Shown: piece by piece, positions 7,205-64,000 of the stretch
Layout: the number at the start of each line of letters is the position of its first letter
How positions within the stretch are numbered: position 1 is the stretch's first letter
Assembly (NCBI GenBank): GCA_015178975.1
Contig: WHVD01000063.1
Location: 418,964-482,963 of the forward strand
Direction: 5' to 3'
From: Hysterangium stoloniferum
Taxonomy: Eukaryota > Basidiomycota > Agaricomycetes > Hysterangiales > Hysterangiaceae
DNA: 64,000 nucleotides
The notes under the pieces: generated by a model
Database searches by the model: none
The model's input: the letters and a program-made list of their open reading frames with translations, nothing else
What the model was told of the DNA's origin: nothing
Position numbers and translations under genes: made by a program

Positions 7205-8545
7205 CGGTGAAATATACTCAGGAAATATAGTCTGGATGAGCTCATACTATATTCCCTTTATTATTTCTACTCTCTCTATTTTTATTATACACTTATAATT
7301 AGTTCGACGACCTATGTATGCAGTACATCGACTCTTGTGGGTGCATACACGCCAGACTTATGTATTCTAGCGCCTGTAGTTAAAACTCAGACACTTTTTA
7401 CCTCGCAACCACGACTTATCCAGACACACAGTTAGTGTCCTGTAAGTCGTGATTGAGGTATCATCTGGACCGTCACAGACAGGTTTCAACTATCTACATA
7501 ATCTTAGTTTCAAACTGTACCAGTCGAAACCCCATTTATATCTCAATCCACGCGGACCACATCCACACTATTCTACCATTTGACTCTCATTACTCTTTTC
7601 TACACTCGAGCAGTCACTCAGAATTGCACCTAACGGTCGATTCCTTTACTTTGTTGTAGCTATCTACTCTACCTTAGATAGTTACTTCACTCAGACTGTT
7701 AAGTGCCGTGTCGGGAACTTATTCCGGAACTATCGGGAAGTCACCGGAAAGTCGGGAAGTCACCGGAAAGTCGGGAAGTCACCGGAAAGTCGGGAACAAC
7801 TAGATAGGGTCAGGACGTCGGCTTCAGCTTATGTGCTGCGCCTCTACGCAAACGCTCAATGTCCTTAATTTCAGAGGTGAGACTTGTGATGGGAGTTACG
7901 GATATTCAGAGTTCCGAAGAGTTCCAAATATCGAGCGTACAGAAAGACGGGAGAAGGAATAAGAAACTAAGTCGATATCAGATCTAAGGTAAAGTACAAA
8001 TTCGCGGAAACTAATATAAGTCTGCTCATTATTGTACTACAAACTAAGACAATAATAAGATGGAAACGGAAGTGTTCTTAAAACGGAAATACAATAAGAC
8101 ATATTAGGAAGGCAATATTCCGTAACAGGAATATAACAAACAAACGAGTGAATACTTGTCAACGGACAAATTACCAAATGCGGAACAAGGGAAGAATGCG
8201 GATGATACGGTAACTATGATGTTCCGTAGTCGGAGGTCAAAGTCGGAAGTCGGGGATCGGAAGTCGGGAGTGGGAGACCGGAAGTCGGATATTGAAACAT
8301 CCGGGAACGGGTCGTAACACAGACGTATTGAACTAAATAGTCAATACTTGTTCAGCGTGTGTTGAACTTAGACAGTCAATACAACTACGTGTCGTACCTA
8401 AACAGTCGATATTCTTCGTATATAGAACGGTTAGAACTTCCACCACTCTTCACACTATGGATGTAGCATTGTCAACCCAGAAGGTTACAATGGCCCAAGT
8501 ATTGTCATCCGAGATCTTGAAAAATATGGTGCTGTCATAATTGGA
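7205..8545 (+). repeat. Copia-like LTR and leader, split by a solo LTR
   Basis: 7205-7696 and 8320-8457 form one LTR/leader block (family F) once the solo LTR at 7697-8319 is removed. At 8458 an ATG opens a 27-codon frame (MDVALSTQKVTMAQVLSSE) that could be the start of a Copia gag before it hits a stop. The block contains the short inverted words CGACTTACAGGACAC and GTCCTGTAAGTCG around 7400-7455. Confidence 0.4.
7697..8319 (-). repeat. Solo LTR, Gypsy family B, target duplication CAGAC
   Basis: It starts TGTTAAGTGCCGTGTCGGG and ends GTCGTAACA, the same termini as the LTRs of the complete element at 10274-16828, in the same (minus) orientation. Perfect 5-bp duplications CAGAC flank it (7692-7696 and 8320-8324). 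At 623 bp it is longer than the 544-548 bp copies because of three tandem 19-bp units at 7734-7790 and further CGGAAGTCGG-type repeats at 8221-8290. No internal region is present, so it arose by LTR-LTR recombination. Confidence 0.93.
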
Positions 8546-10190: not shown

Positions 10191-10273
10191 CTTCAACACC
10201 CTCAAAAATATTCAATGAATGTTCAACTTACATTTGACTTGTCTCATTTCAACATCATAATTTCATTCATAGG

Positions 10274-10821
10274 TGTTAAGTGCTGTGTCGGGAACTTATT
10301 CCGGAACTATCGGAAAGTCACCGGGAAGTCGGGAACTATTAGATAGGGTCAGGACGTCAGCTTCAGCTTATGTGCTGCACCTCTACGCAAACGCTCAAAG
10401 TCCTTAATTTCAGAAGTAAGGCTTACGATGGAAGATATGGATATTCAGAGTTCCGAAGAGTTCCGAATATCGAGCGTACAGAAAGATGGGAGGAGGAATA
10501 AGAAACTACATAAGTCGATATCAGATCTAAGGTAAAGTACAAATTCACGGAAACTAATATAAGTCTACTCATTATTGTACTACAAACTAAGACCATAATA
10601 AGACGGAAACGGAAGTGTTCTTGAAACGGAAATACAATAAGACATATTAGGGAGACAATATTCCGAAACGGGAATATAACAAACAAACGAGTGAATACTT
10701 GTCAATGGACAAATTACCAAATACGGAACAAGGGAAGAATGCGGATGATACGGTAACTATGATGTTCTGTAGTCAGAGATCGGAAGTCAAATATTGAAAT
10801 ATCCGGGAACAGGTCATAACA
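10274..10821 (-). repeat. 3' LTR of the family-B element
   Basis: 548 bp with TGTTAAG...CATAACA ends on the plus strand, i.e. TGTTATG...CTTAACA in transcript sense. It keeps an intact copy of ATATCAGATCT (10518-10528), the complement of the predicted primer-binding site at 16272-16282. The distal end is flanked by ATAGG. Confidence 0.95.
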
Positions 10822-11005
10822 GTACCTCCCTGTTAGGCCGAAATCCCATAGAGGCGGTTAGGTACTGAGTGATTGAAGCGACGGCTGATTATTATGTGTC
10901 GTGAAATTTACGCAATTCTGGAGGTGAGAGTTTTGGCTGATGTTCTGAGTATAAAAACCTCCAAATATTCGAATTAATGTTTTTGTTTCTTTATCCACAA
11001 CTTGT

Positions 11006-12149
11006 ATGTCGATTCATCAGCCTCTATTCATCACTACCCAGGAAGATTCAGATACCGAAATTGCCGTACTTCAAAAAATGTCGAAGGTCGCAGAACTTCA
11101 ACAAAAATGACAAAGGTTGGAGGAGTTGAAGCGATGACAAGAGGAGGAGGAAAAGGCATTGATGCAGGAGTTGAAAGATGCGGAAGAGGCAGAAAAACGG
11201 GAGTTGGAGCGAGCGAAGGCGGAAAAAGAAGCGTGGATCCGGAAAACGACGGAGGCTCAGAAAAAGAAGGAAGAGGCGGAAAGGTTACAGCAGGAGTCAG
11301 AGGCGGCGAAAAAACGTGAGGAAATAAGGGAAGGAAAGGTAAGTGAAATCCATAAATTTCTGTGGTTCCAACCGATAACTATTGGGTACAGCGAAAAGCT
11401 GTGGAGGTTGAGGTAGAGGGAGAGGCTGGACCTTCGAGTCCTAAAGTAAGTGCATCTACAAAAGGCCGGTAATTGATTAACTTCCGAAACAGAAGCCAAA
11501 GGTCAAGGCTCCGGAACGGATGGAAGTGGTCCATGACAATCCGTGTTATCGATGTTCCATACGGAGTATGACGTGTTGGAAACAGAAGGTAAAATGGGGT
11601 GGAACTTGCTATCCCTGCGCAGTTCTTAAACTTCCGTGCACTCTCACCTCAAAAAGGGTTCCAAAAGGTGAGAAGCCTCAGAAAATTAACGATGCGGAAA
11701 GTTCAGGAGCGGCCAAAGCTGCAGAAACTGAGGTGCCGAAAATGGATAGTACGGGCATGGAGCTCCTCAAGGACACTGTTGATGCGTTAGTCTTTATCGG
11801 GACGGAAGTTATGAAAATGTGGGATACACTAGATCGCCATAATGAAATCCAGGAAAAAGGTTCCTGTTCATTGATCCGAAACTTCTGGAGGCAAAACGAA
11901 TTCCTGGAGAAGGTAATGGTTAGCATCGGTGTTATCGCAGTTTCCAAGAGATTTTCCGATAAGGCACAGGAACAGCCTAATGATCCGTTGGTGGAATGTG
12001 TCAAGAAAAGGTGGGATTCAGGAAATGGGCTGGAAGTATTAGAGAGTGAGGATGAAGAGGTGCAGGATATGGTGGAAAGTGTGGAAGTTGCTGATGAGAC
12101 GGAAGTCGGGATGGAAGGTGGATTTGGGGTATCAGAGACTTTAAAATAG
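11006..12149 (+). pseudogene. Antisense spliced gene of the family-B Gypsy: coiled coil plus Zn2Cys6-like domain
   Basis: Transcribed against gag-pol, between the 3' LTR and the end of pol. Exons 11006-11338, 11392-11445 and 11493-12149, joined by two GT-AG introns (53 and 47 nt, both with GTAAGT donors), give one frame of 348 codons including the stop; all exon lengths are multiples of three. Exon 1 encodes a Glu/Lys-rich coiled coil (about residues 20-110). Exon 3 carries six cysteines spaced C-x2-C-x6-C-x10-C-x2-C-x6-C (11544-11639), the pattern of fungal Zn2Cys6 DNA-binding domains, followed by a second helical region and an acidic tail. Two TGA codons (11108, 11135) interrupt exon 1 where CGA is likely, so this copy is probably silent. 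The gene ends 93 bp from the pol stop. Function unknown; a DNA-binding regulator is inference. Confidence 0.75.
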
Positions 12150-12242
12150 ATGCAAATAAATTTGACTTGTATGATTTCAAAATGAGTGTGATATCGGAAG
12201 TAGCAGAAGTGTCGGAAACTGAACAGAAAGAAAACGGAAGGG

Positions 12243-14180
12243 TCAGAGTGATGATAAAGGTCTGGGTTTGCTTGGATAAGCTGTGTGGAAGTCAGTAACA
12301 ATTTCCATAGCGTGTCCGAGTTCCGTGGCCAATATCCATGAAGTTTCCTCATCGGTACCTTCATAACCTGCCCATTTGACTAAATAGAGCAATTTACAAG
12401 TACATCGGCAATTGTCAATTTTAGAATCCAAAATTTCAGAAACTTCAAATTCGGGTTCTCTGTCAATGATGACTGGAGGGGACAGAGGTTGAATATGTTC
12501 TGGGATTTTGTTAGGAACACAGGGTTCTAACATGGAAACGTGGAAAATGGGGTGAACTGCTCGCATACTATCGGGAAGTCGGAGAGTCCATGAGAGTGAA
12601 CCAGCTTGTGCTATAATTTCAAAAGGGCCTAAGAATTTCTCAGCGAGTTTTTTAGAAGGTCGGGTAGTACGGAAGAATTGAGCTTTTACAAAAACCTGAT
12701 CACCAATTTTAAAATTAGGAGGCGGGATCCTGTTTTTGTCTGCGGAATGTTGATAATATTCCTGTGTGGAAGAAATAGCTTTCCGAAGTTCTTGATGTAA
12801 TTCATCGAGGTCGGTTATAAATTCTTGAGCACGGACAGAAGCCAAATCTCGTTTGGAATGTACAGTGAGATTCGGATTATAGCCTTTGTTGGCGAATACA
12901 CCGGTAGTTGCATTCGGAGAGTTATTGTAGGCGAATTCCGCGATCAGGAGAAGGGATTTCCAGTTGTCCTGTTGATAATTGCAATAGATGTGGAGATATT
13001 GTTCCAATGTTTGATTTACACGTTCCATTTGTCCATCACCTTCCGGGTGATATCCCGAGGTGAAGTGTAGTTTCATGTCGAGGGCTTTTCCAAGGGCCTG
13101 GAAGAAATGAGAGACGAACTTGGAGCCTCGATCTGTTGAAACAGTTGAATAACACTTTGCAGAACACCCCTGTGAGTGTGATTTGAAAGTAAACACTAAG
13201 TATATTCAACTGTAAAGACATACCTGTGAGTGTGATTTGAAAGTAAACACTAAGGAGACTTTCCCACACCCACAGTGGACTATACTACTAGGTGCTTATC
13301 TAAGCACCTATACAGGAGGTACCGACCTAAGGTAACTCACTCAATACTGCACCTACAGTGCTGGGAAAAATACTACAAATATCAGAAAAATATGGAGATC
13401 ATAATAGACTATGTTAGAGCTGTAGTATCATACTCTAACACGATCGGAAGTTACATGAGACAGAACTCCGTGTTTGGAAAATACGTGAATAATGAAAAGT
13501 TCCACTAATTGTAAGGACATGATTGTATCATGAGTGGGTATGAAAATGCCTTGTTTCGAGAATCGATCCACAACAACTAGAATGGATGTAAAGCCTTCAG
13601 AAGTCGGGAGTTGTTCGATAAAATCCATGGAAATTGAGTTCCAGGGTTTTTCTGGTATCGGGAGTTGCTTGAGAAGGCCGTACGGCTTATGCCTCTGGGT
13701 CTTAGAGCATAAGCAGGTGGCGCATGACTTACAGAACTGGGTTACGAAATCTCGGAGGTTGGGCCAAGTGTATTCTCTACGGATTAAACCAAGAGTATTG
13801 TTAATGCCGTAATGTCTGGAGATTGGATGATCGTGTTTATACTGAAGTATGTGGAGTCGGAGATTGTTGGAATCTGGAATGTAGATACATCCATTGAGAC
13901 AGATAAAACCTTCAGAGTCTTGTGACCATTGGGGTTGGTCAGGATTATCAGGAACTTCTAGATGTGGCTTGAGAGCCGGATCGGAAGTGAGTGCGGAAAG
14001 GATATCTTGATGTAATTGCTCAATGTCCATAATCATGACACTACGCATAATTGGATAGTAGAGGGAAGTTGCTCAAATAGATGCGGAAAGTTGTTGCGTT
14101 GTGAAAACCGGTTTCAAGTTATGCGGATTAACAACGGCATAGTTACTTTCCCCCTCCTTAGGATAGACGTCCCATCGTCG
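12243..14180 (-). pseudogene. Family-B integrase and chromodomain (interrupted)
   Basis: From high to low coordinates: the zinc-binding HHCC part (about 13890-13700, ending CKSCATC), the catalytic core with SMDFIEQLP and HVTSDR, then after the 307-bp insertion GSKFVSHFF and SGYHPEGDGQ (catalytic D, D, E region), the GPFEIIAQ-type linker, and a chromodomain (YLVKWAGYEGTDEETSW, about 12420-12330) before the stop at 12243. Compared with the element at 57693, three residues are missing in the ANKGYNPN region. A TGA near 14070 interrupts the link to RNase H. It is not functional as it stands. Confidence 0.9.
13134..13440. mobile_element. Solo LTR-like insertion (family E) in integrase, duplication CGATC
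   Basis: 307 bp with TGTTGAAACAG...CTCTAACA ends, flanked by perfect CGATC repeats (13129-13133 and 13441-13445), inserted between the SDR and GSKFV codons of integrase. It contains two tandem copies of a roughly 50-bp unit built around CCTGTGAGTGTGATTTGAAA (about 13166-13254). A second copy with the same ends lies at 23523-23773. No coding content. Family assignment (Copia or Gypsy) cannot be made. Confidence 0.85.
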
Positions 14181-14216
14181 AGTCATGGCATCTGATTTTC
14201 CACCAAGATGTCCGGG

Positions 14217-16250
14217 TCAGAAACGGATAATCATGTTGAAAGCGGAAAGGAATTCAGACCATCGGGCCTGCCAGCGGGTTAAAAGTTTAGTGGTAGAAAA
14301 ATATTCAAGATTTTTGTGATCGGTAACAACATCAATGGGAGTTGCGGAACCTTCGAGATAATGGCGCCAATGTTTGAAAGCTTCAAAAATTGCCAAAAGT
14401 TCCTTATCATGAATCTCGTAGTTGAGTTCAGACACTGAAAGTGTCCGAGAAAGAAATACGACCGGATGAATTTCACCATCAGAATCTTGAATGGAAAGAA
14501 TTGCAGCAATTGCATAATCGGAAGCATCGGTTTCCACAATAATCGGAACATCAGGTTTCCAATGGGAAAGAATTGGGGCAGAAGTGAAAGCATCTTTTAA
14601 AGTCTGGAAGGTGGAGCGGCATTTGTCGTCAAAGACCCATGGTTGAGTTTTATGGGTAAGACGAGTGAGTGGTACTGTAATGTCTGAGTAGTTCTGAATA
14701 AAATGACGGTAAAAGTTGGCGAAACCTAAAAATGACTGAATGTCCTTGACTTTCTGTGGTTCAGGCCAATCACGGATAACTTGAACCTTGGTTTCATCCA
14801 TACGGAGACCATTAGGTCCGATAATGAAATTCGTGCCAGAGTTGACGGTGTTATTGCCTGAGTTGTTGCTGGAAGACTTGCTAGTCGACGCCTTGTTATT
14901 CTGAGAACGTTCCGTCGGGTTCTCTCGAGAGACCTCGGCTTTTCGTTCCCAATAACGGGCATCGGATGTTTGAGCTTTAATCCGCATAAGTTGGAGAGTT
15001 TTTGGCTTCCCATCTTTGCAGATCTCGTCTTTAAGGCGTGATGGAAGTCCCATATAGAAATGGTGCCTGAGGGCGGAATCGTCCCATCCACATCGTGTGG
15101 CGAGGGTATTGAACTTGACGAGATAATCGGAAACTTGTTGATTGTCCTTCATCTTGAGCGTCATTAATTCATTTTCCGCTTTGCCGGATTGATCGTAAGG
15201 TCTGAAATTAGTTTCCAGTTCTTCCACAAAAGCATCCCAGTCATCGAGCCATACGGGTGTCTCGTCAGATATTCCAGATAGTCCAGGTTCGAACCAATCT
15301 TGAGCAGTATCCTTGAGATAAGAGAGCATGAAATTGACTTTTCGACTGTCGGATTTAAATGCAGTGGGTCGATCACAGAAACTGAAACGGCATTGGAGAA
15401 GGAAATTCTTCAATTTTTTCAGATCCTTGCCGGTAAATGGTTCGGGTTCTTTGACTCCGGTGCAGGATGATTCTTTACTATCCTCAGTGGATTTCAAGTA
15501 GTCAGCGAATTTCACAATGGAGTTGATAAACAACATTTCAGTCGGTTCGTCGGAAGATTTCTTTTTCAATGTCTCCGGCTGATCTTCTGCTTCATTGTCA
15601 GAAGTGTGGGGAATATTGGTGTCCTTTGTTACCTCGGTAATCTCCTTGTGAAGAGTGGTGGAAGTTCTGACCATTCTATATACAAAGAAATGAGTAGAAA
15701 GGAAGGATATTGACCTATTTGGTGCAATATAAGAGAAAGTAAGAGAAAGAGCACGAGATGACGAAGGAGTCAACGAGTGCGATGGTTCGAGTGGAGGCCT
15801 CGACTGTTATAGTTCGAGGCCAGAAGTGTTCAGTAGTTCAGATATTGCTACCTATGTGGTAGCTGACACGTTACCCTGATCACCGCTCGTAGTAGACCTA
15901 GTTTGTGTCTTACGAGTGGTGGTTCTTGGGTTAAAGTGTGTCTGAGTTCTAATTGGTGCCAAGTGCACCCACAAGTATACACAATGCTTCGAACTAATGA
16001 AATGATGGAATATTCGAAGAATATAAAAGATAGATAAATATGAATAGAATGTGTAGAATATAAATAAAATAAAAGGAGTGTTTTACCACAATGAAACTGT
16101 GGTAAAAGCATACTCCTCACACTCCTCAGTAACTTCTTCGACTGAAGCTGATGTTGTCGGCTGAATTGGGGTTTTGGGTTGAGTGGTGTAAAGTTGCAAT
16201 GGGGATTGAAGTTGGGATGGTCCTTCGGCAGCTTTGTGTTTGGGACCCAT
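14217..16250 (-). pseudogene. Family-B gag fused in frame to RT-end/RNase H, split by an insertion
   Basis: Gag starts at 16250 (MGPKHKAAEGPSQLQSP, similar to the N-terminus of the other Gypsy gag). After an insertion of about 0.5 kb (15640-16130) it continues through the capsid-like region (VNFMLSYLKDTAQDWF; GLPSRLKDEI). Near 14835, after an Asn/Ser-rich linker, the frame jumps straight to GPNGLRMDETKVQVI, the end of reverse transcriptase, and then RNase H (VETDASDYAIAAILS; HDKELLAIFEAFKHWRHYLEG). Compared with the element at 57693, about 1.75 kb is lost: zinc knuckle, protease and the YLDD active site. A TGA at 14217, where an Arg codon is expected, ends the frame. Confidence 0.88.
15640..16130 (-). 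mobile_element. Insertion in family-B gag, LTR-like (family F)
   Basis: A foreign block separates gag codons EEVTEE from the VTKDTN segment. On the minus strand it starts TGTGAGGAGTATGC, contains ATTAGTTCGAAGC and CTTGTGGGTGCAC, and so resembles the family-F LTR pieces at 6601 and 7205. A short hairpin (TTTACCACAATGAAACTGTG) lies near 16081. I could not read a convincing target duplication, so the borders are approximate. Confidence 0.5.
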
Positions 16251-16271
16251 GATGAGCGAGTCGCAGAGTTC

Positions 16272-16282
16272 AGATCTGATAT
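16272..16282 (-). promoter_or_regulatory. Predicted self-priming primer-binding site, family B
   Basis: Two bases inside the 5' LTR, the transcript-sense sequence ATATCAGATCT is exactly complementary to AGATCTGATAT within the LTR (plus-strand 10518-10528 in the 3' LTR; one transition in the 5' LTR at 16525-16535). The geometry equals that of the family-A element (58416-58426) and of the Tf1/sushi type of Ty3/Gypsy elements, which prime from the 5' end of their own RNA. Confidence 0.75.
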
Positions 16283-16284
16283 AC

Positions 16285-16828
16285 TGTTAAGTGCCATGTC
16301 GGGAACTTGTTCTGGAACTATCGGAAAGTCACTGGGAAGTCGGGAACTATTAGATAGGGTCAGGACGTTGGCTTCAGCTTATGTGCTGCGCCTCTACACA
16401 AACGCTCAAAGTCCTTAATTTCAAAAGTAAGGCTTACAATGGAAGATATGGATATTCAGAGTTCTGAAGAGTTCCGAATATCGAGTGTACAGAAAGATGG
16501 GAGGAGGAATAAGAAACTAAGTTGATATCAAATCTAAGGTAAAGTACAAATTCGCGGAAACTAATATAAGTCTACTCGTTATTGTACTACAAACTAAGAC
16601 CATAATAAGATGGAAACGGAAGTGTTCTTAAAACGGAAATACAATAAGACATATTAGGGAGACAATATTCCGAAATGGGAATATAACAAACAAACGAGTG
16701 AATACTTGTCAATGGACAAATTACCAAATATGGAACAAGGGAAGAATGCGGATGATACGGTAACTATGATGTTCTGTAGTCGGAGATCGGAAGTCAGATA
16801 TTGAAATATCCGGGAACGGGTCGTAACA
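16285..16828 (-). repeat. 5' LTR of the family-B element
   Basis: 544 bp. In transcript sense it has a TATA-like CTTATATTAG (16571-16562) about 33 nt before the predicted RNA start at 16535. Relative to the 3' LTR it carries several single-base changes, mostly transitions such as tgctgtg/tgccatg and accggg/actggg. Confidence 0.95.
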
Positions 16829-18021
16829 ATAGGTCATAGTATGTATAATCATAGTTTAATGAAGAAAGGCATAAAAGGGCAATGAGAAGAGTAAAGGACC
16901 TCAGTCAGAAAATCTTGACTATCATCTGGAAATTAGTTTCTATATCAATAATCCAAGTCTTGTATTGTTGTAACTCTTTGACATTACCTCAGTGAGCCTT
17001 CACATCTGGTATTAGCCTCTTACTTCATCAACAGGGTGAATTTATACTTCGTCAAATGAGGCTTCTCTATTCAGTTTAGGTAGAATATATTACAATTATT
17101 ATTCAACTTTATTGAAGGAATTCAATTCATGTCACAGATGATCTACAGGAGGCTATGCTATTTTTCTAGGTTTAAGGCCCATATCTTGGTCCTCAAAAAA
17201 GCAAACTACAGTGGTACTTTCATCCATGGAATTGGAATATATTGCACTCTCAGAAGTGGCTGGTGAAATCATGTGGACCAGGCATTTTTCAGAAGAAATT
17301 GAACATCATATATGAAGAACCAATGGCTATTTTTGAAGATAATCAAGGAACAATTGTGTTTGCTTCGAATCAATGTGCATTAAGAATGAAGCACATTGAA
17401 ATTAGATATCATTTTATTCAACATTTACTTGAAAACAGAATATCTAACTCCACTACTGCTCAACTAAAGAAATGACTACAGATATATTAACCAAGGTCCT
17501 TTCCCCATTAACCAATTCCTATCATACTCAACATCTAGGACTTTGTTTTTCAAAACTTGAGGAGGATGTTAAAAATATTGGCACAGTTCTATTAAAAGAC
17601 TCTCAGTGAGTGGTAACTCCACTGAGAGATCATGCTAGTGTGTGCTAAGCTAAAATACCTCATATGTCCATGTTCCTGAACTGTACAGGTGCTTTAGCCA
17701 ATTACTATGTTCTTGATTACATAATACACTGATTTAATACTTTTATTTCAACAGAGGAGTATTTGGAAATGTGTATTGAAGAACTTAGTGTGTGAACAAA
17801 ATATGAGACAATATGTCTTGCAGTGATACAATGTTTTATTTCCTTCTGAATCTCCTTCTAAATGTACTATTATATGTACATGTGCAGAAAAGTCTCTCAG
17901 TGATTTTATTAACATTGAGAGTATGTGGTTATATTGTTTTCTCTTGTTTATGGTATAACTCATTATGTATACTTAGTAGAACTGCTATTAGGTATAGTAT
18001 AATACAGTGATTTTAGTAACA
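16829..18021 (+). mobile_element. Internally deleted Copia-like element
   Basis: The left part ends in CTTCACA followed by TGGTATTAGC (17007-17016), which resembles the initiator-Met-tRNA primer site of Copia elements. Soon afterwards (17136-17566) comes the end of Copia RNase H: SSKKQTTVVLSSMELEYIA, then EEPMAIFEDNQGTIVFASN and a CALRMKHIEIRYHFI segment, with frameshifts. The polypurine GAGGAGGA leads into TGTTAAAAAT at 17567, the probable 3' LTR, which may end GTAACA at 18021. Gag, integrase and reverse transcriptase are missing. Confidence 0.65.
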
Positions 18022-18837: not shown

Positions 18838-20025
18838 TGTTCCTAACACCAAGTTTGGTGTTTATTTATCTCGTTTTATGTTTGCTAGTTTAGTTTCCAT
18901 TATTACTGGATTTGGTATGTTATTGTTACAACCGTGTCGCAGCCGTTCGGCCCTGAGGTTATCGCCACCTATCGACGATTCAAGTTATCGCTCAAGTCAC
19001 CACATCGGAAACCATCACCCCCGATGCTGATGTATGCTTTCGCGGTGATCAAACTCTGTTTACACCCACGTCAAAATATACTCGTACTATCTGGTTAAAC
19101 TTTTGATACGTCCCTTTATTATGATGATCTGTTCTATCCTATGTTTCACATATGCCTATATATACTTGTAACCCTCGAACTATTTCCTTTTCCTGTAACT
19201 ACACTCTTGGTTATCTCTTCGGCCTCCGAACTAATCATAAACTTCCCGTTCCTAGTCAAGCTTATTGTCAATACCCTGTTCCGCTCTTCTCCTAGTTAGT
19301 ATTTTCTAGACACCTGATACTTGTATATGAACCCACTGTAGTTGTAGTTACTAGGCAATCAGAATATCGACTCAGAATACCCTCTTACACCTCTAGCAGT
19401 CTTGTACTAAGAATCCCCTCATCCGCCTTTGTGTGCACTCATCCACTCTCGGTCGCCGTCCCTTGGCCCAACACTTGACTTAACCTTCGGTCCCAATCAG
19501 TATCTCACCGAAAGGAACTCGTTAGGATTAGTCTTTGCCCACCCAAAATTTAAGGACACTCAACGGACATTTGCGAGGGTGCAGCACATAAGCTGAAGCC
19601 AAGTCCTTCCAATCGGTCCCTGTCAGCCAACCGACATCAGTCAGTTTTCAGTTCTTAACAGTTATTCATTCTACAGTCTATATAGTCTGGCAGATGTTGT
19701 ACATACAATCCAGTCAGAAAATCAGCTCAGATTCTCCCCAGTAATCTTAGTATATTTTCTGCTCTAAATTCCTCTTTGAAACACACCACTCTTACTTGTC
19801 AGAGCCCATGGGCTCCAATGCATCTATCACTCAACCTCTGACTTATCTATCTCGACTCCCTGACCTCTCAACCCACGAACCCTGCCTGGACTCCCCAGGA
19901 TTCCCGTCCACCAATTTGAAATTGGACAAGATGATCTCACAAGGGTGCAGCCTATAAGCTGAAGCCAAGTCCTACCAGCTTTCCTGTGGGTTTCTCCAGA
20001 AACCCTCCATGTACACACCTTAACA
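18838..20025 (+). repeat. Repeat D (LTR-like), copy split by a solo LTR
   Basis: 18838-18923 and 19661-20025 together match the reverse complement of 6129-6600. The repeat ends CACACCTTAACA at 20025, an LTR-style terminus, and holds the AAGCTGAAGCCAAGTCC block near 19960. The sequence just upstream (18460-18837, Pro/Thr-rich in several frames, without a credible gene) may be more of the same element. Confidence 0.65.
18924..19660 (+). repeat. Solo LTR, Gypsy family A, target duplication GTTAT
   Basis: 737 bp, TGTTACAACCGTGTCGC...GTTCTTAACA, flanked by GTTAT at 18919-18923 and 19661-19665. Its target lies inside repeat D, and the uninterrupted repeat at 6129-6600 shows the empty site with a single GTTAT. 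Confidence 0.95.
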
Positions 20026-20129
20026 AAGCCCCCCAATGCTGCTGCTTGGCTCAGAGGGAGTAATTCCAACTATACATACATAAGCATGGTCTGGTGCCTG
20101 TTATTTGCACCTTGTACACATAATGCATA

Positions 20130-20344
20130 CAGTGACTTACAAAATGTATCCAATGTTTTGTAGTTTCAGCTTATATATGCTATATCCCAGTAGATAAAAT
20201 AGTAGAAATCACCAAAATATTTGTGAACATGACCTATCATGTATATATTTGTATGGTAGAACTATATTATGTAATATTCATATATGGAAATGCTATGAAT
20301 ATTTTAATGGAGAGGGTTCATTGGATACGTTTTGTAACTGACAG
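20130..20344. repeat. MITE-like element with Tc1-type inverted ends
   Basis: 215 bp. The left end CAGTGACTTACAAAATGTAT (from 20130, preceded by TA) is matched, inverted and imperfect, by the right end GATACGTTTTGTAACTGACAG (up to 20344). The interior is AT-rich and non-coding. The position just before the Tc1 transposase at 20478 could mean it is the damaged 5' part of that element, but the paired ends favour a separate miniature element. TA is clear on the left only. Confidence 0.5.
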
Positions 20345-20477
20345 GTTCTGGCATGAAAACCATATGCCTATGTTGATTGTTTGCATTTGTTTATGTTTTT
20401 CAACATGTCATGTGATCATTATATACTACAGTATAAGTTGAAGGGCTTTCTCAGCTAAGACTCCCTCAATTCTAACT

Positions 20478-21497: not shown

Positions 21498-22052
21498 GCC
21501 TTAATTTCTGCACTCAGAGACTCCAATTTAAACAATGATTGTGTATCACTCCATATATTAATTCTTCAACACAATTCTCCAGGCATTGAAAGAAGCCTTA
21601 TCATTCATCTCTTTGGATAACTAATCTGTGACGAATTTCAACATAAGCATTATTATATTTCACCACCTAGTGACTTCGACATTAGTATATTTGGCCTTGA
21701 GAGTCAAAGGAATTGTGGTGGGCCTTTTTTTCTTTTTACTTATTTTAAGCATCTTGACTAACCTCTTTCTTGATGTTTAGGAGGGTTTGGGCTCCAGGTT
21801 GCCACAACCTTGTCATTTATGTCATAATATGTAAGTAAAATTTACTCAACATGACTTAAAAGACTTTCTATGTAGATTATTATTACTATATGATTGCCAC
21901 TGGGAGGGGTGATATTTAGGTTCGTTGAGACATTTACAGTAAGCCTGCAGACCAGTCCATACCTCACCTACCCAAAGCTCTTCCAATGTATGGTAGAAAA
22001 GATATGTTACCACACAGAGTTAAGACCATTTGTTATTGATGCAGCTATTGCA
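21498..22052. other. Non-coding stretch between two DNA transposons
   Basis: AT-rich, no gene, no repeat recognised. It contains the flank of the Tc1 gene and ends at the left inverted end of the mariner-type element. Confidence 0.5.
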
Positions 22053-22175
22053 TAAGGTAGGGGACATCCAGATCCTGCTAAGGCCATGTGGCATGTATGT
22101 CACAGTCACAACACAAAAATCATGGTCAAGATGCCATCCATACATAAATGAGATCTGGACAAGATAATGGCCGAG

Positions 22176-57692: not shown

Positions 57693-58413
57693 TGTTACGA
57701 CCGTGTCGCAACCCTATCGGCCCCGAGGTTATCGCCACTTGTCAACGTTTCAAGCCGTCCCCTCGGAAACCATCGGCCCCGAAGCTGACGAATGTTTCGC
57801 GAAGATCAAACTCCATTTACGCCCACGTCAAATAACTCGTATTGTCTGGTCAAACTTTTGATACGTCCCCTTTATTATGTTGATCCGTTCAATCTTATGT
57901 TTCGCATATGTCTATCTATATTTGTAGTCCTCGAACCATTTCCTTTTATCGTAATTCCGCTCTCGGTTATCATCGGCCTCCGAACTAATCATAAACTTCC
58001 CGTTCCTAGTCAAGCTTATTGTTAATACCGTGTTCCGCCCGTCTCCCCATTAGTATTTTCCAGACGCCTGTTACTTGTATATGAACCCGCTGTAATTGTA
58101 GTTACTAGACAATCAGAATATCGACTCAGAATACCCTCATACACCTGTATCAGTCTCATACTAAGACTTCCCCCATCCGCCTTCGCGTGCGCTCGCCCAC
58201 TCCCGGCCCCGACCCCTTGGCCCGACGCTTGACTTGTCCTTCGATTCCGATCGGTATCACGCCGAAAGGTACTCACTAGGACTAGTCTTCGCCCGCCCGA
58301 AATTTAAGGACATCCTGCGGATATTTGCGAGGGCGCAGCCCATAAGCTGAAGCCAAGTCCTTCCGATCGGTCCCTGTCGGCCACCGACATTAGTCAGTTT
58401 CCAGTTCTTAACA
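57693..58413 (+). repeat. 5' LTR of the family-A element
   Basis: 721 bp with TGTTACGACC...TTCTTAACA ends. It contains TATATG at 58078-58083, the predicted RNA start at 58111, and the conserved U5 block (GCAGCCCATAAGCTGAAGCC) near 58336. Confidence 0.95.
58078..58121 (+). promoter_or_regulatory. LTR promoter: TATA box and predicted RNA start
   Basis: TATATG (58078-58083) lies 33 nt before AATCAGAATAT (58111-58121). The latter is complementary to the sequence just after the LTR, as expected if the RNA begins here and primes its own reverse transcription. The family-B LTR shows the same spacing. Confidence 0.65.
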
Positions 58414-58451: not shown

Positions 58452-59750
58452 ATGCCTCCGAGGAAAAATGCCAAGCCTAGCGGCGAAGCAGAATCTTCCA
58501 CTCTCAAGTCTCCTTTTCTGTATACAGCCCGAGCTACTCAGAAAACTCCGCTACCAGAAACCTCCGAAGAATCTCGCTTTGTGGAGATTACCGGCGATGC
58601 TGAAGAAGTAACTGAAGCAACCGATCCCGAAGCAACTGAGGAGATTAACAATCAACCAGTTTCGGAACACGAACCCGAGGATGGCGACCAACCTCAGGCT
58701 AGTGGCTCCAAGAAGTCTGCAAAGAAGAAACCGGCTCTCGACCCTGAAGAAACATGGGAATTGTTTTCAGGTACACTAGGATCCCTTAATGAATTCCTTA
58801 AAAGCAATATCAAGGAAAAGGAACCTGGGCAAACCCGAGTCAACAAACCCGAGCCATTTACTGGCTCAAACCCGAAGAAATTGCCGACATTCCTTATGCA
58901 ATGTCGATTCAACTTTCGGGACCGCCCGGCTGCATTCGCAACGGATGACCGAAAGGTAAACTTCGCACTCTCATACCTTAAGGATTCCGCAGCAGCCTGG
59001 TTTGAACCCGCATTTTCTGGCCTCACCTCTGAAGACCCCGATTGGCTCCACGATTGGGATGCCTTTGTCGAGGAACTCGAAACCAACTTCGGCCCCTACG
59101 ACCAAACCGGCGATGCCGAAACCGCGCTTTCTAATCTCAAAATGAAAGACACTCAGCGCATCACCGATTATATCGTCCAGTTCAACAACCTCGCCGCGCG
59201 TTGCGACTGGGGCGATTCGGCCCTCCGTTACCAGTTTTACTCCGGCCTTCCGTCTCGCCTCAAAGACGAAGTCTCCAAAGGAGAGACCGGCAAGCCGAAA
59301 ACCCTCCCTCTCATGCGCCTGAAAGCCCAAAACGCAGACGCTCGATACTGGGAACGACGTTCGGAAATCAGTCGCGAAAACCCATCGGACAAAAAATCAT
59401 CGGACAACAAAAATGCCAATAAGTCTGGTAACCAAAACACCAATATAACTGGCAACTCGACTTCCGATAAGAAGTCCGAAAACAAAGGGTCTAACGACAA
59501 AAAAGGCAAGGGCAAACAGTCGAATAAGTCTCAAGACAAAGACAAACCCGACCTAACTGGCAAACTCGGCTCCGATGGCAAGCTCCTCCCACAGGAAAAG
59601 CAACGCCGAATGGACAACAACCTTTGTTTGTTGTGTGCAGATCCCGGACACCGAGTCGCTGCATGCCCAAAAGCCACAAAAGCCCGATCGGCCAACACGG
59701 CCACGACCTCACAACCGGCCAAGCCGGCTGCCGAGTCGAAAAAAGATTAA
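58452..59750 (+). CDS. Gag polyprotein of the family-A Gypsy element
   Basis: Forms the virus-like particle and binds element RNA. 432 residues. An acidic/basic N-terminal 130 residues is followed by the capsid-type domain (FTGSNPKKLPTFLMQCRFNF; VNFALSYLKDSAAAWFEPAF; YDQTGDAETALSNLKMKDTQ; YQFYSGLPSRLKDEVSKGE), a Lys/Ser/Asn-rich linker, and one zinc knuckle CLLCADPGHRVAAC (C-x2-C-x4-H-x4-C, about residues 396-409). The start at 58452 follows the LTR by only 38 bp, typical of Tf1-like elements. The end overlaps pol by 127 bp in another frame. Confidence 0.93.
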   Translation: MPPRKNAKPSGEAESSTLKSPFLYTARATQKTPLPETSEESRFVEITGDAEEVTEATDPEATEEINNQPVSEHEPEDGDQPQASGSKKSAKKKPALDPEETWELFSGTLGSLNEFLKSNIKEKEPGQTRVNKPEPFTGSNPKKLPTFLMQCRFNFRDRPAAFATDDRKVNFALSYLKDSAAAWFEPAFSGLTSEDPDWLHDWDAFVEELETNFGPYDQTGDAETALSNLKMKDTQRITDYIVQFNNLAARCDWGDSALRYQFYSGLPSRLKDEVSKGETGKPKTLPLMRLKAQNADARYWERRSEISRENPSDKKSSDNKNANKSGNQNTNITGNSTSDKKSENKGSNDKKGKGKQSNKSQDKDKPDLTGKLGSDGKLLPQEKQRRMDNNLCLLCADPGHRVAACPKATKARSANTATTSQPAKPAAESKKD

Positions 59751-62700
59751 GCAACTCTCTGGATTCCGTGCGGTTGGAGAGTTGCGTTGAATCTCCTCGC
59801 ACACCGGAAAATTGTCATCTTAACGCATCCGCATTGTATGATCCTAATTCCTTGTTCATAAATCTTACTTCGGAACCTCTCGGGAGTTTCACTTTTCGAG
59901 CTCTCATAGATTCAGGTTCAACCCATTGTTTTATAGATACAAGTTTTTCCAGAAAAAATCAGTTGAAAACCTATGCAATAGATCCGATTCCGCTCCGACT
60001 TTTTGATGGTACCTCAAACTCCGTAATCTCGCAAGCCTGCGAACTCCGACTTCGGTTCCCGTGTGGAACCTTTCAGACAGTTACGTTTTTTGTAACACAG
60101 TTGGACTCGAGCTGCTCCGTGGTTCTAGGACATAACTGGCTCACCCGCTATAATCCGTTGATTGATTGGGTATTGGGCAGTATCCATTTCCGAACCCCGT
60201 CGGCACCCGTTACGACTGTTCCGTTTCCGCCTGTTTCGGCAAATATGGCCTCTACAGCACCTCCGGCCCCCGTGGCAAATCCGAGCTCTCCGCCGCCTGT
60301 CTCTCTAATAAACGCCGCAGCTTTTATGAGAGCCATCAATTTGGACGGCTCCCGAGCATTTACAGTCAATCTTAAAGTTGACGAAGTCACCGGTCGCTTT
60401 GCATCCCCGGTGACCGAACCGATCGCAGATTTAGAAGGTGTTCCTAAAAAATACCATGAATTTGCAGATGTCTTCAGTAAACAAAAAGCCGATCGACTCG
60501 CCCCTCACAGGCCTTACGATTTGAAAATTGATATTGAAGATGGTTCACATCCGCCCCTAGGCCCAGTTTATCCTCTCTCGCAGTCCGAATTATCGGCTAT
60601 CCGAGATTTCTTGGATGAACATTTGGCTATAGGTTTTATCCGACCCTCAAAGTCTCCCTATGGAGCCCCTGTCCTATTCGTTCGGAAAAAAGACGGTTCC
60701 CTTCGACTCTGCGTTGACTTTCGAGGACTAAACGCAATTACTCGAAAAGACAAGTACCCATTACCATTAATCTCCGATTTACTCGACGCCCCTCGGAAGG
60801 CCCGAATTTATACAAAGATAGATCTCAAACACGCCTATCATTTGGTTCGGATCGCCGAAGGCGACGAATGGAAAACGGCTTTTCGCACTCGCTATGGCTC
60901 CTTTGAATGGTTAGTAATGCCTTTCGGCCTCACCAACGCTCCGTCGGTCTTTCAACGTTTTATCAACGATGTCTTTTCCGACCTCCTTGACGTCTTTGTC
61001 ATTGTGTACCTAGACGACATCCTCATCTTCTCCGAAGACCCTACACTTCATGATGAACACGTCCGTGAAGTCCTCCGAAGACTCCGAAAACATGGTCTTT
61101 TTGCGAATGGTAAAAAATGTTCTTTTGATGTCGACACGGTCGAATACTTAGGCTTCATGATGGGACCCGATGGTCTCCGCATGGACGACGCTAAAATTCA
61201 AGTCATTCAAGATTGGCCGGAACCCCGAAAGGTTAAAGATATTCAATCCTTTTTAGGCTTCGCCAATTTTTATCGCCGTTTCATTCACAATTACTCAAAA
61301 ATTACCGTTCCGCTCACTCGTCTTACTCGCAAAGACACCCCGTGGAATTTCTCCGAAGAATGCCGATCGGCATTCCAGGAATTGAAAAGTGCGTTTACAT
61401 CCGCCCCTATCTTGTCGCACTGGAAACCCGACGTTCAACTCATCGTGGAAACTGATGCTTCGGACTATGCGCTTGCCGCGATATTGTCCATTCTGGACAC
61501 CGATGGTGAAGTACACCCAGTAGCTTTTCTGTCTCGCACATTTTCGGCGCCCGAACTCAACTACGACGTTCACGATAAGGAATTACTCGCAATATTTGAA
61601 GCTTTCAAGACATGGCGACATTATTTGGAGGGCTCGGCCCACCCGGTAGATGTTATTACAGACCACAAAAATTTAGTTTACTTTTCAACCACAAAACTTC
61701 TCACCCGTCGACAAGCTCGATGGTCCGAATACCTCTCCGCTTTCAACATGGTAATCCGCTTCCGTCCCGGCCGCCTTGGTGGAAAACCCGACGCTATGAC
61801 TAGACGATGGGACGTCTATCCTAAAGAGGGGAGTAGCGACTACGCCACAGTTAATCCGCATAATTTCAAACCTATGTTTTCATCGGAACAACTGTCCGCA
61901 TCTATCCGAGCCACTTACCTCATTCATCCAGTCTTGCGAAGTGTTATCCTTATGGATACCGAAAAGTTACATCAAGACATGCTATCGGCAATTCCATTAG
62001 ACCCAGTCACCAAAGCACACCTCGATAACCCGTCCGACCCCGATCAGCCCCGATGGTCATTAGACTCACAAGGTTTCATTCGACTTGACAATCGCATTTA
62101 TGTACCGGATTCCGACACCCTTCGGCTGCGAATCCTACAACATAAGCACGACCACCCAATCTCAGGACATTTCGGCCTCAATAAGACCCTCTCACTCATT
62201 AGAAGAGAATATACATGGCCCGGCATCCGAGATTTTGTTAAGCACTATTGTAAATCCTGTACTACGTGTTTACGCTCTAAATCACAGCGACACAAACCAT
62301 ATGGCCTACTCAAACAATTACCGATACCGGAAAAACCCTGGAACTCGATTTCTATGGATTTTATCGAGCACCTACCGGCATCCGAAGGTCACACAGCAAT
62401 CCTAGTTGTTGTGGATCGGCTCTCAAAGCAAAGTATTTTCATTCCAACATATGACACGATAACATCTGTACAGTTAGCTGAATTATTCGTTACCCACGTA
62501 TTTTCCAAGCATGGCGTTCCGTCGCATGTCACATCCGATCGCGGCTCCGAGTTTGTCTCTCACTTCTTTAGGTCACTCGGAAAAGCACTAGACATGAAGT
62601 TACACTTCACTTCGGGCTATCACCCGGAAGGCGATGGACAAACCGAACGCATGAATCAAACCTTGGAGCAATACATCCGTGTCTATTGCAACTATCAACA

Positions 62701-63439
62701 AGACAATTGGAAATCACTACTACCGCTGGCCGAATTCGCATATAACAACGCACCAAATGCCACTACTGGCATTTCGCCTTTCTTCGCAAATAAAGGCTAC
62801 AACCCCAACATCGCAATCCACCCGGAACGCGATCTCGCATCCGCCCGTGCTCAAGACTTTGTTACAAACCTCGACGAGCTACATCAAGAACTTCGTAAAA
62901 CTATCGCAATGGCTCAAGAACGATACCAACGGTCTGCGGATAAAACCGACTTCCACCTCCTGATTTCAAGATCGGAGACCGAGTATTCGTTAAAGCCGAG
63001 TTTTTCCGAACTACTAGACCTTCTAAGAAGCTCTCTGAAAAAATATTTAGGTCCTTTCGAAGTTATAGCACAAGCCGGCACACTTTCATGGACGCTTCGG
63101 CTCCCCGACAACATGTGTGCAGTGCACCCGGTATTTTTTTCATGTATCTATGTTAGAACCTTGTGTTCCTACAATATACCGGATCGCATACAGCCACCAC
63201 CTCCACCCGTGATTATTGATGGGGAACCCGAATTCGAGATATCAGAAATCCTAGACTCAAAAATCGACAATCGCCGACGCTCATGCAAATTACTTTATTT
63301 GGTCAAATGGGCTGGCTATGAAGGTACAGATGAAGAAACTTCATGGATCCTAGCTACAGAGCTCGGTAATGCCTCGGAAATCGTTTTAGGGTTTCACCAA
63401 GCTTATCCGAACAAACCCGGTCCTCTCAATTCCTTATAA
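59624..63439 (+). CDS. Pol polyprotein of the family-A Gypsy element
   Basis: Long frame in the -1 phase relative to gag, so its expression probably needs a -1 shift in the 127-bp overlap; the ATG-less start supports this. Domains: protease (ALIDSGSTHCFID, about 60000), reverse transcriptase with VDFRGLNAITRKDKYPLP, FGLTNAPSVFQRFIND and YLDDILIFSED (active site), RNase H (VETDASDYALAAILS; TDHKNL), integrase HHCC (HPISGHFG to CKSCTTC), core (SMDFIEHLP; HVTSDRGSEF; HPEGDGQTERMNQTLEQY), linker LGPFEVIAQAG and chromodomain (YLVKWAGYEGTDEETSWI, about 63295-63348). Two short stretches near 62940-63045 and 63130-63180 are read in a shifted frame because of pairs of small indels at A- and T-runs. Confidence 0.93.
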   Translation: MFVVCRSRTPSRCMPKSHKSPIGQHGHDLTTGQAGCRVEKRLSNSLDSVRLESCVESPRTPENCHLNASALYDPNSLFINLTSEPLGSFTFRALIDSGSTHCFIDTSFSRKNQLKTYAIDPIPLRLFDGTSNSVISQACELRLRFPCGTFQTVTFFVTQLDSSCSVVLGHNWLTRYNPLIDWVLGSIHFRTPSAPVTTVPFPPVSANMASTAPPAPVANPSSPPPVSLINAAAFMRAINLDGSRAFTVNLKVDEVTGRFASPVTEPIADLEGVPKKYHEFADVFSKQKADRLAPHRPYDLKIDIEDGSHPPLGPVYPLSQSELSAIRDFLDEHLAIGFIRPSKSPYGAPVLFVRKKDGSLRLCVDFRGLNAITRKDKYPLPLISDLLDAPRKARIYTKIDLKHAYHLVRIAEGDEWKTAFRTRYGSFEWLVMPFGLTNAPSVFQRFINDVFSDLLDVFVIVYLDDILIFSEDPTLHDEHVREVLRRLRKHGLFANGKKCSFDVDTVEYLGFMMGPDGLRMDDAKIQVIQDWPEPRKVKDIQSFLGFANFYRRFIHNYSKITVPLTRLTRKDTPWNFSEECRSAFQELKSAFTSAPILSHWKPDVQLIVETDASDYALAAILSILDTDGEVHPVAFLSRTFSAPELNYDVHDKELLAIFEAFKTWRHYLEGSAHPVDVITDHKNLVYFSTTKLLTRRQARWSEYLSAFNMVIRFRPGRLGGKPDAMTRRWDVYPKEGSSDYATVNPHNFKPMFSSEQLSASIRATYLIHPVLRSVILMDTEKLHQDMLSAIPLDPVTKAHLDNPSDPDQPRWSLDSQGFIRLDNRIYVPDSDTLRLRILQHKHDHPISGHFGLNKTLSLIRREYTWPGIRDFVKHYCKSCTTCLRSKSQRHKPYGLLKQLPIPEKPWNSISMDFIEHLPASEGHTAILVVVDRLSKQSIFIPTYDTITSVQLAELFVTHVFSKHGVPSHVTSDRGSEFVSHFFRSLGKALDMKLHFTSGYHPEGDGQTERMNQTLEQYIRVYCNYQQDNWKSLLPLAEFAYNNAPNATTGISPFFANKGYNPNIAIHPERDLASARAQDFVTNLDELHQELRKTIAMAQERYQRSADKTDFHLLISRSETEYSLKPSFSELLDLLRSSLKKYLGPFEVIAQAGTLSWTLRLPDNMCAVHPVFFSCIYVRTLCSYNIPDRIQPPPPPVIIDGEPEFEISEILDSKIDNRRRSCKLLYLVKWAGYEGTDEETSWILATELGNASEIVLGFHQAYPNKPGPLNSL

Positions 63440-63548
63440 GTCTATCACGCGGTACCGACCTTTTTCCGACTATGCCTTATGTTTTCACGCTATGATTTGT
63501 TTGTTTAAAAAGAAAAACCGATATATTTCACTATCTAATTTTCTCCCT

Positions 63549-64000
63549 CTACAACTTCTCCCTCCTCTCCGACCTCCGAACCCACCTCCGCACCGACAGC
63601 CACCGATACCACATCACCGACCTTCTCCGAAACCCCAATTTCATGCCCCCGCAACTCGAGACTTCCAAATACTGCTCAAGTTGACCACCGAGAGACTCGA
63701 TAACACTGGTCTGTTTCTCCAGCCCGACGCCCAAGAGTCGCAATTGCTCAGTTACGAGCCCTTGTTGTCGCAACATCTCATATCGGTACCGGCTCGTCTC
63801 CGAGAAGTAGGTCCGCATGAGGCGGTTTTGCTCTTCTAGAGCATCGGCCTGTCGCTCCTGGAATGAGCCATCGGCCCCCGGAAAAACACACCCAAGCTTC
63901 TGATCAGCGCACTCTTGACAAGTGCGGCCCGACCATTGGTCCGGGGATGACAGGTTCGACCCCGTTTCGTGCACCGATTGCACTTGGGGTCATTTTCGGG
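63549..64000 (-). pseudogene. Antisense ORF of the family-A element, Zn2Cys6-like array broken by one base
   Basis: Convergent with pol, stop 109 bp after the pol stop, running in from the right edge. Its last part (63983-63549) is open and encodes the second half of a cysteine array (TCQECADQKLGC) followed by a coiled coil (ADALEEQNRLMR; SVIESLGGQLEQYLE). The first half of the array (CNRC, then x6, then C, 63982-63950) lies in the next frame. The distance between the halves is 29 nt, one short of the 30 nt needed for C-x2-C-x6-C-x10-C-x2-C-x6-C, the exact spacing of the gene at 11006-12149. So the same gene is present but shifted, or the base is a sequencing error. Upstream exons are outside the window. 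Confidence 0.7.

What the first reader, a model, noticed from the sequence alone, without database searches (positions are those of the whole stretch)
11006..12149. A chromovirus carries a spliced antisense gene for a Zn2Cys6-like, coiled-coil protein
Seen: on the strand opposite gag-pol, three exons with two clean GTAAGT...AG introns, every exon a multiple of three, join to a 348-codon frame (stop included) holding a coiled coil and six Cys with exact Zn2Cys6 spacing. Known: fungal Zn2Cys6 domains bind DNA; antisense ORFs exist in some plant Gypsy elements, and the antisense HBZ factor of HTLV-1 is a regulator. Inference: an element-encoded DNA-binding regulator made from the 3' end, perhaps controlling LTR activity or targeting.
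Basis: partly seen in the sequence, partly recalled or inferred. Interest (0 to 1): 0.88.

Follow-up and report, generated by a model that had tools for sequence, protein, structure and literature searches.

The report
Spliced antisense zinc-cluster gene in retrotransposons
Two families of jumping elements in a mushroom-group fungus carry, on the strand opposite their usual genes, a small intron-containing gene kept by natural selection whose protein looks like a zinc-cluster DNA-binding protein and so may help the elements control themselves.

Summary
The antisense gene is real, but broken in this copy: exon 1 has two in-frame TGA codons (11108, 11135), so there is no open 348-codon frame. 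In 38 aligned genome copies the ATG and intron 1 splice sites are kept in 38 of 38 and exon lengths mostly in threes. The coding frame has dN/dS 0.30 (bootstrap 0.27-0.34) against 1.01 and 0.72 in the shifted frames, like the element's own pol (0.35). A second chromovirus family (58.6-64 kb) carries a homologous antisense gene with the same three-exon plan, a TATA box 57 rather than 56 nt before the ATG, and the Cys spacing CX2CX6CX10CX2CX6C; 14 of 16 near-identical copies examined are fully open. A profile of exon 3 proteins has LEU3 and PPR1 zinc clusters as first PDB matches, individually weak (E 0.18, 0.27). Best reading: an accessory gene with its own promoter, encoding a nuclear zinc-cluster protein that regulates the element. 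Coding is well shown; transcription, DNA binding and regulation are inferred. Antisense accessory genes are known in plant Gypsy elements and Botrytis Boty; this spliced zinc-cluster form is a new variant, seen so far only in Hysterangium stoloniferum.

The parts
10274..10821 (-). 3' LTR of the focal chromovirus (family A), TGTTA...TAACA; rich in CGG(G)AA words
   Evidence: about 95% identical to 16285-16828; CGG(G)AA 17 found vs 1.6 expected, 0 of 1000 shuffles reach it
10269..10273 (.). target site duplication ATAGG
   Evidence: same 5 bases at 16829-16833
10822..11005 (+). leader and likely promoter of the antisense gene, TATAAAA at 10950-10956, 56 nt before the ATG
   Evidence: TATAAAA in 34 of 38 copies; leader divergence 4.3% vs 8.9% and 7.6% in exons 1 and 3
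11006..11338 (+). antisense exon 1: charged (E/K/R/A-rich), probably helical; two in-frame TGA codons in this copy (11108, 11135)
   Evidence: ATG in 38 of 38 copies; dN/dS 0.28
11339..11391 (+). intron 1, 53 nt, GTAAGT...CAG
   Evidence: GTAAGT and CAG in 38 of 38 copies, length 51-58
11392..11445 (+). exon 2, 18 codons, ends GPSSPK
   Evidence: 54 nt in 37 of 38 copies
11446..11492 (+). intron 2, 47 nt, GTAAGT...CAG
   Evidence: GT in 38 of 38, AG in 36 of 38, length 47-49
11493..12149 (+). exon 3: zinc cluster, probably helical middle, acidic tail; open in this copy
   Evidence: dN/dS 0.31
11544..11639 (+). six-Cys zinc-cluster motif CX2CX6CX10CX2CX6C
12243..16284 (-). gag-pol remnants of the focal chromovirus (gag, RNase H, integrase, SH3_Tf2-1, chromodomain) with a gag-RNase H deletion
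16285..16828 (-). 5' LTR of the focal element; 11-nt self-priming match just inside it
57693..58413 (+). 5' LTR of the second chromovirus (family B)
58629..63439 (+). gag-pol of the family B chromovirus (pol C-terminal part 67.5%, integrase 73%, RNase H part 79%, gag part 53% identical to family A)
63535..64000 (-). 3' part of the family B antisense exon 3 (zinc cluster onward), cut off by the contig end and frameshifted in this copy
   Evidence: 40 scored genome places including this one

Best explanation
It is an accessory protein gene of a chromovirus (Ty3/Gypsy) lineage, lying tail to tail with pol and transcribed in the opposite direction from its own TATA promoter between the 3' LTR and the ATG. 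Two short introns are spliced from the antisense mRNA only; the sense genomic RNA carries them as reverse complements that cannot be spliced, so reverse transcription keeps them (established logic of intron orientation; inference here). The protein has a charged, probably helical N-terminal part, basic stretches at the exon joints that could direct it to the nucleus (SPKKPKVK in A, KKKREGKRK in B; motif reading mine), an acidic stretch (family B), a Zn2Cys6-like cluster, further probable helices and an acidic tail. Most likely it dimerises, enters the nucleus and binds DNA of the element (LTR or leader) as a regulator of its transcription. Shown: gene structure by conservation, homology of the two families, purifying selection, Cys spacing. 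Inferred: transcription, splicing, zinc binding, dimerisation, nuclear location, DNA binding, regulatory role. Rough odds: real spliced protein gene 0.95; zinc-cluster fold 0.8; DNA-binding regulator of the element 0.5.
For: Coding: dN/dS 0.296 (0.267-0.335) in frame vs 1.007 and 0.715 in shifted frames over 19 disjoint pairs of family A copies; family B 0.422 (0.315-0.535) vs 1.049 and 0.969 over 12 pairs. Same constraint as the pol C-terminus, 0.345 in 31 of 40 loci (6 with partial and 3 without that part dropped). Exon lengths are multiples of three in 30, 37 and 33 of 38 copies while introns vary by single bases. In 16 of the 40 family B places, exon 2 is 84 nt in all 16 and 14 of 16 are fully open, while intron 2 ranges 47-59 nt. 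Same plan in both families: exon 1 ending EGK, exon 2 ending GPSSPK, phase-0 introns, TATA 56 and 57 nt before the ATG, 93 and 95 nt between the facing stop codons. Homology: tblastn 39.6% over 53 aa, E 4e-5; hhalign 82%, E 1e-5 over the zinc cluster. A public gene model, BU17DRAFT_68404 of H. stoloniferum, joins exons at the same two places. Introns persist: 0 intronless vs 146 intron-bearing exon 2 junctions for family B. Zinc cluster: LEU3 and PPR1 are the first PDB profile matches and 4 of 8 rows are zinc-cluster regulators.
Against: No RNA data. Most family A copies are decayed: only 1 of 38 is open throughout and exon 1 has on average 1.24 stops per copy, no fewer than one shifted frame (1.13). 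In family B the leader (7.0%) is not more conserved than exon 3 (6.4%), so a specially conserved promoter holds for family A only. Pfam Zn_clus is not reached: 8.6 bits vs 21 in one family A copy, no row for the focal exon 3 or the family B protein; the focal exon 3 alone has no PDB match at E up to 10. Family A's cluster is poor in the basic residues that contact DNA in known Zn2Cys6 proteins (recalled), and the cluster sits mid-protein. The LTR word test is not specific: family B LTR shows no excess of CGG(G)AA (6 vs 3.2, 86 of 1000 shuffles) or of CGG itself (32 vs 28.7), only of inverted CGG pairs (10 vs 3.8, 9 of 1000); the family A leader has none; the LTRs first meant as control proved to be family B type. 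The structure model failed. No relative was found outside H. stoloniferum.
Confidence: 0.6

Rival explanations
1. The protein is made but is not a transcription regulator: a nuclear-import, RNA- or cDNA-chaperone or integration-site cofactor, acting through its basic and helical parts, with the zinc cluster as a structural or general nucleic-acid-binding module.
For: The zinc-cluster match is below threshold and family A's cluster is not very basic; Pfam finds no other regulator domain in exon 3. Nuclear import is a role discussed for antisense proteins of plant elements (PMC7264820 section 7).
Against: The six-Cys spacing is kept across two families that share little else in exon 3, and the best solved relatives by profile are DNA-binding regulators.
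Confidence: 0.25
2. The gene acts against the host, for example by countering silencing of the element.
For: Copies show heavy CpG-context transition decay, a sign of host methylation, so escape from silencing would pay; selection on the protein is as strong as on pol.
Against: No domain or other result points to it directly.
Confidence: 0.12
3. The antisense transcript itself is what matters (double-stranded RNA or interference with sense transcription) and the protein is incidental.
For: The transcript would be complementary to the 3' part of the genomic RNA; such regulation is discussed for plant elements (PMC7264820, passage).
Against: Protein-level selection, exon indels mostly in threes, introns free to vary.
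Confidence: 0.05
4. Chance frame or a captured host gene fragment carried passively.
For: The focal copy has two stops in exon 1 and most family A copies examined are broken.
Against: Selection in two families, 300 scored exon 3 matches (150 of 852 and 150 of 530 candidates), identical gene plan and place in the element.
Confidence: 0.02

Closest known systems
brtn of Boty-like Gypsy elements, Botrytis cinerea (Zhao et al. 2011, Virology; the paper itself not read, only its title and citations in PMC7264820, PMC8365987 and PMC4227169)
   Same: additional antisense gene in a fungal Gypsy element whose gag-pol has a chromodomain (PMC4227169 passage)
gene23 of maize Grande and the aORF-3R class of plant Gypsy elements (RIRE2, Retand, PvRetro13)
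   Same: antisense gene between pol and 3' LTR, present in most copies; for Grande a promoter upstream of the gene and a nuclear protein (PMC7264820, sections 5 and 7 and passages)
   Different: plant elements (Retand is non-chromovirus); Retand proteins carry TRP28, some with Smc-like stretches (PMC11963269, abstract, passages and part 1 of section 11); the words zinc and intron occur in neither text
Zn2Cys6 regulators LEU3, PPR1, LAC9
   Same: CX2CX6C...CX2CX6C cluster; the LEU3 match runs on beyond the cluster
   Different: host genes; cluster near the N-terminus of those proteins (recalled); Pfam threshold not met here
HBZ of HTLV-1
   Same: nuclear antisense-encoded protein of a reverse-transcribing element (passage in PMC11963269)
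   Different: unrelated protein (bZIP, recalled); HTLV's antisense promoter lies in the 3' LTR (PMC7264820 passage), here a separate leader promoter is likely

Membership tests
[quoted passage not shown]
   family B
aORF-3R (antisense additional ORF between pol and 3' LTR) | conserved in family copies about as well as the other encoded proteins | tested here: met
   38 copies, dN/dS 0.30 vs pol 0.345; what share of all family copies carries it was not measured
aORF-3R (antisense additional ORF between pol and 3' LTR) | antisense transcript | not testable with these tools
   no RNA data; conserved TATA box only
Zn2Cys6 zinc-cluster proteins | six Cys spaced CX2CX6CX5-12CX2CX6-8C (spacing recalled) | tested here: met
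   family A 35 of 38 copies, 27 of 38 without a stop inside the stretch; family B 20 of 24, 19 of 24 without a stop
Zn2Cys6 zinc-cluster proteins | Pfam PF00172 at gathering score | tested here: not met
   best 8.6 bits vs 21, in one of 3 proteins given
Zn2Cys6 zinc-cluster proteins | sequence relatives among solved zinc clusters | tested here: inconclusive
   profile: LEU3 E 0.18 and 2.1, PPR1 0.27, LAC9 8.7, 4 of 8 rows; focal sequence alone: none
Zn2Cys6 zinc-cluster proteins | zinc and DNA binding | not testable with these tools
   needs purified protein
brtn of Boty | protein homology to brtn | not testable with these tools
   no brtn sequence at hand
Tf1/sushi-type self-priming chromovirus | SH3_Tf2-1 and chromodomain after integrase | tested here: met
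   SH3_Tf2-1 70.3 bits (cutoff 30); Chromo 23.5 bits, E 5e-5, just under its cutoff 25.1
Tf1/sushi-type self-priming chromovirus | primer site complementary to the element's own LTR transcript | tested here: met
   11-nt match two bases inside the LTR in both families

The most novel reading that the evidence does not exclude
Chromoviruses of a basidiomycete lineage acquired a host-type Zn2Cys6 DNA-binding protein as an antisense, intron-keeping, self-promoted gene that feeds back on its own LTRs: an HBZ-like autoregulator built from a fungal zinc cluster, with a CGG-type binding word (CGG(G)AA in family A) that evolved along with it.
Probability: 0.3. Interest if true: 0.82.

Novelty: new variant of a known kind. 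Interest (0 to 1): 0.62.

Why it matters
Antisense accessory genes of LTR elements have no settled function. Here is a case with many near-identical open copies, a recognisable candidate DNA-binding cluster, a likely promoter and protein-level selection as strong as on pol, so the regulator hypothesis becomes directly testable. It also shows how a retroelement can carry an intron-bearing gene through rounds of reverse transcription: by keeping it antisense.

Tried and rejected
Homologues elsewhere: three protein-database searches gave none or one weak hit, an H. stoloniferum model (E 1.2e-3); two viral-contig scans gave none. These searches need shared exact words, so absence elsewhere is not shown.

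Structure: single-sequence AlphaFold2 of exon 3 had mean pLDDT 42, so no fold search was made.

LTR binding words: a post hoc idea. Family A LTRs are rich in CGG(G)AA (17 vs 1.6 expected in the 3' LTR, 10 vs 1.4 in the 5' LTR); across 38 copies the count is 4-17, mean 8.9, the highest being 17 as in the focal LTR. Family B shows no excess of CGG(G)AA or CGG, only of inverted CGG pairs. The LTRs at 19 and 22 kb, first meant as a control, proved to be family B type, so there is no independent control. Left as a hypothesis.

Overlapping minus-strand ORF (11678-12364): the minus frames over exon 3 carry 3.5 to 9.9 stops per copy; rejected as a gene.

Third element at about 0.3-3.1 kb (minus, pol pieces 35-60% identical): no antisense frame recognised between about 900 and 1600; degraded, inconclusive.

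Dating by LTR divergence was not attempted because all 25 LTR differences are transitions, 20 in CpG context.

Full report
What is there. The window holds a minus-strand Ty3/Gypsy element with LTRs at 10274-10821 and 16285-16828 (about 95% identical), 5-bp target duplications ATAGG, and gag, RNase H, integrase, SH3_Tf2-1 and a chromodomain just under Pfam's cutoff. Eleven bases just inside the 5' LTR are complementary to the element's own LTR, the self-priming known from Tf1/sushi elements (recalled). Between the 3' LTR and the pol stop (12243-12245) lies a plus-strand gene.

The host. Contig C537 of the window's assembly is 381,332 bases long, the same as the contig behind protein BU17DRAFT_68404 of Hysterangium stoloniferum, and that protein's best matches are on C537 (residues 196-235 98% identical, residues 72-167 78%). 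The host is therefore inferred to be this ectomycorrhizal basidiomycete (one passage of PMC7550596).

Is it a gene? A DNA search scored 40 of 360 candidates for this region, and a protein search with exon 3 scored 150 of 852 candidates, 109 of 150 without a stop in exon 3 by my hand count; these are capped, lower-bound lists. Forty loci of the DNA matches were fetched; 38 were aligned, one partial copy and one with an insertion being dropped. Two pairs among the 38 are over 99.9% identical, so not all are independent. ATG is kept in 38 of 38, intron 1 GTAAGT and CAG in 38 of 38, intron 2 GT in 38 and AG in 36. Exons 1, 2 and 3 are multiples of three in 30, 37 and 33 of 38 copies; introns vary between 51 and 58, and 47 and 49 nt. 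Only 1 of the 38 is open through all three exons, and exon 1 has 1.24 stops per copy on average, so most of these family A copies are decayed. Yet dN/dS in the coding frame is 0.296 (bootstrap 0.267-0.335), against 1.007 and 0.715 in the two shifted frames, with similar values per exon. The pol C-terminus of 31 of the 40 loci gives 0.345; 6 loci had only part of it and 3 none in the fetched flank. One minus-strand frame over exon 3 also gives 0.349, but with 3.5 stops per copy; it shares third positions with the coding frame and is read as a shadow. Six more divergent copies (72-75% identical in exon 3) were fetched; all six keep exon 3 and recognisable exon 1 parts.

A second family. At 58.6-63.4 kb lies a plus-strand chromovirus (pol C-terminal part 67.5% identical), cut off by the contig end. 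Its tail holds, on the opposite strand, a zinc-cluster frame, frameshifted in this copy. Forty of 266 candidate places were scored, all at 97% DNA identity or more, this one included. I fetched 16 of them. Exon 1 is 300 nt in 15 and 282 in one, exon 2 is 84 nt in all 16, exon 3 is 492 nt in 15, and 14 of 16 are fully open; intron 2 runs from 47 to 59 nt. Of eight more divergent copies two are fully open in this alignment; the others have stops, frameshifts, a deletion or a lost ATG. dN/dS over 12 pairs is 0.422 (0.315-0.535) vs 1.049 and 0.969. The gene plan is that of family A: a charged exon 1 ending EGK, exon 2 ending GPSSPK or close to it, phase-0 introns, exon 3 opening with a lysine-rich stretch and the six-Cys cluster. 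TATAAAA lies 56 nt before the ATG in A (34 of 38 copies) and 57 nt in B (23 of 24). The leader is more conserved than the exons in A (4.3% vs 8.9% and 7.6%) but not more than exon 3 in B (7.0% vs 6.4%). The facing stop codons of pol and antisense gene are 93 and 95 nt apart. Exon 3 of B finds exon 3 of A by tblastn (39.6% over 53 aa, E 4e-5), and the profiles align over the cluster (probability 82%, E 1e-5).

Introns in a retroelement. Introns in sense orientation would be lost on reverse transcription of spliced RNA; these are antisense and survive. A search for an intronless exon 2-exon 3 junction of family B gave 0 places, whereas an exon 2-intron 2 pattern gave 146, each with up to 3 mismatches. 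The public gene model BU17DRAFT_68404 joins the exons at the same two places, though its N-terminus is predicted differently and its copy is degraded; whether RNA supported that model is unknown.

The protein. The spacing CX2CX6CX10CX2CX6C occurs once uninterrupted in six frames of the window. It is found in 35 of 38 family A copies (27 without a stop inside) and 20 of 24 family B copies (19 without). A profile of seven exon 3 proteins has LEU3 and PPR1 as its first PDB matches (E 0.18 and 0.27), with LEU3 again and LAC9 among eight rows. This supports a zinc cluster but is not significant row by row; the focal exon 3 alone has no PDB match, and Pfam Zn_clus is not reached. Family B's cluster is basic between the second and third Cys, family A's less so. 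Basic stretches at the exon joints could be nuclear signals (my reading). The structure model was not usable.

How it may work. A promoter in the leader drives an antisense mRNA; splicing yields a zinc-cluster protein with probable helices; it enters the nucleus and binds element DNA. A family A LTR word, CGG(G)AA, is enriched (17 vs 1.6 expected in the 3' LTR) and CGGAA is the top-ranked 5-mer in three family A LTRs. Since Zn2Cys6 proteins favour CGG triplets (recalled), this is a candidate site; but family B shows an excess only of inverted CGG pairs (10 vs 3.8), not of CGG itself, and there is no independent control, so it is a hypothesis.

Known relatives. [quoted passage not shown] PMC11963269, abstract, passages and part 1 of section 11), with nuclear location and an own promoter for Grande gene23. 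One fungal case, brtn of Boty, is cited there and in PMC8365987 and PMC4227169 (passages read; the Zhao 2011 paper was not read). PMC3248453, a survey of fungal LTR elements, has no occurrence of 'antisense' or 'zinc' in its main text. My ten searches of an open-licence library listed no fungal element with a zinc-cluster antisense gene; I saw listings, and most subscription papers are not held. The finding is thus a new variant of a known kind.

Verdict. The gene is real and selected for; the copy named in the finding is broken; a regulatory DNA-binding role is the leading but untested reading.

Noticed in passing
window 14217-15773 (-): The focal element has a deletion joining gag to RNase H: of 40 scored genome matches (1409 candidates) to 14500-15150 only the focal one is continuous, the others end at or near query position 322.
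   Followed up: yes
window 10274-10821 vs 16285-16828, and family A copies: All 25 LTR-LTR differences are transitions, 20 in CpG context; among family A gene pairs 1087 of 2169 differences are CpG-context transitions: methylation-type decay.
   Followed up: partly
window 18924-22919: Two family B type LTRs (82-83% identical to B) flank a Tc1-like DDE_3 transposase ORF at 20796-21497.
   Followed up: no
window 38838-39562 and 7697-8267: LTR copies without a recognised element body: family B type (91% identical) and family A type.
   Followed up: no
window 10822-10866 and L048 753-797: The first 45 nt inside the 3' LTR look alike in families A and B (GGCCGAAATCCCA...GAGGC, by eye) although the LTRs match each other only over 32 nt; perhaps a polypurine-tract extension or an antisense promoter element.
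   Followed up: no
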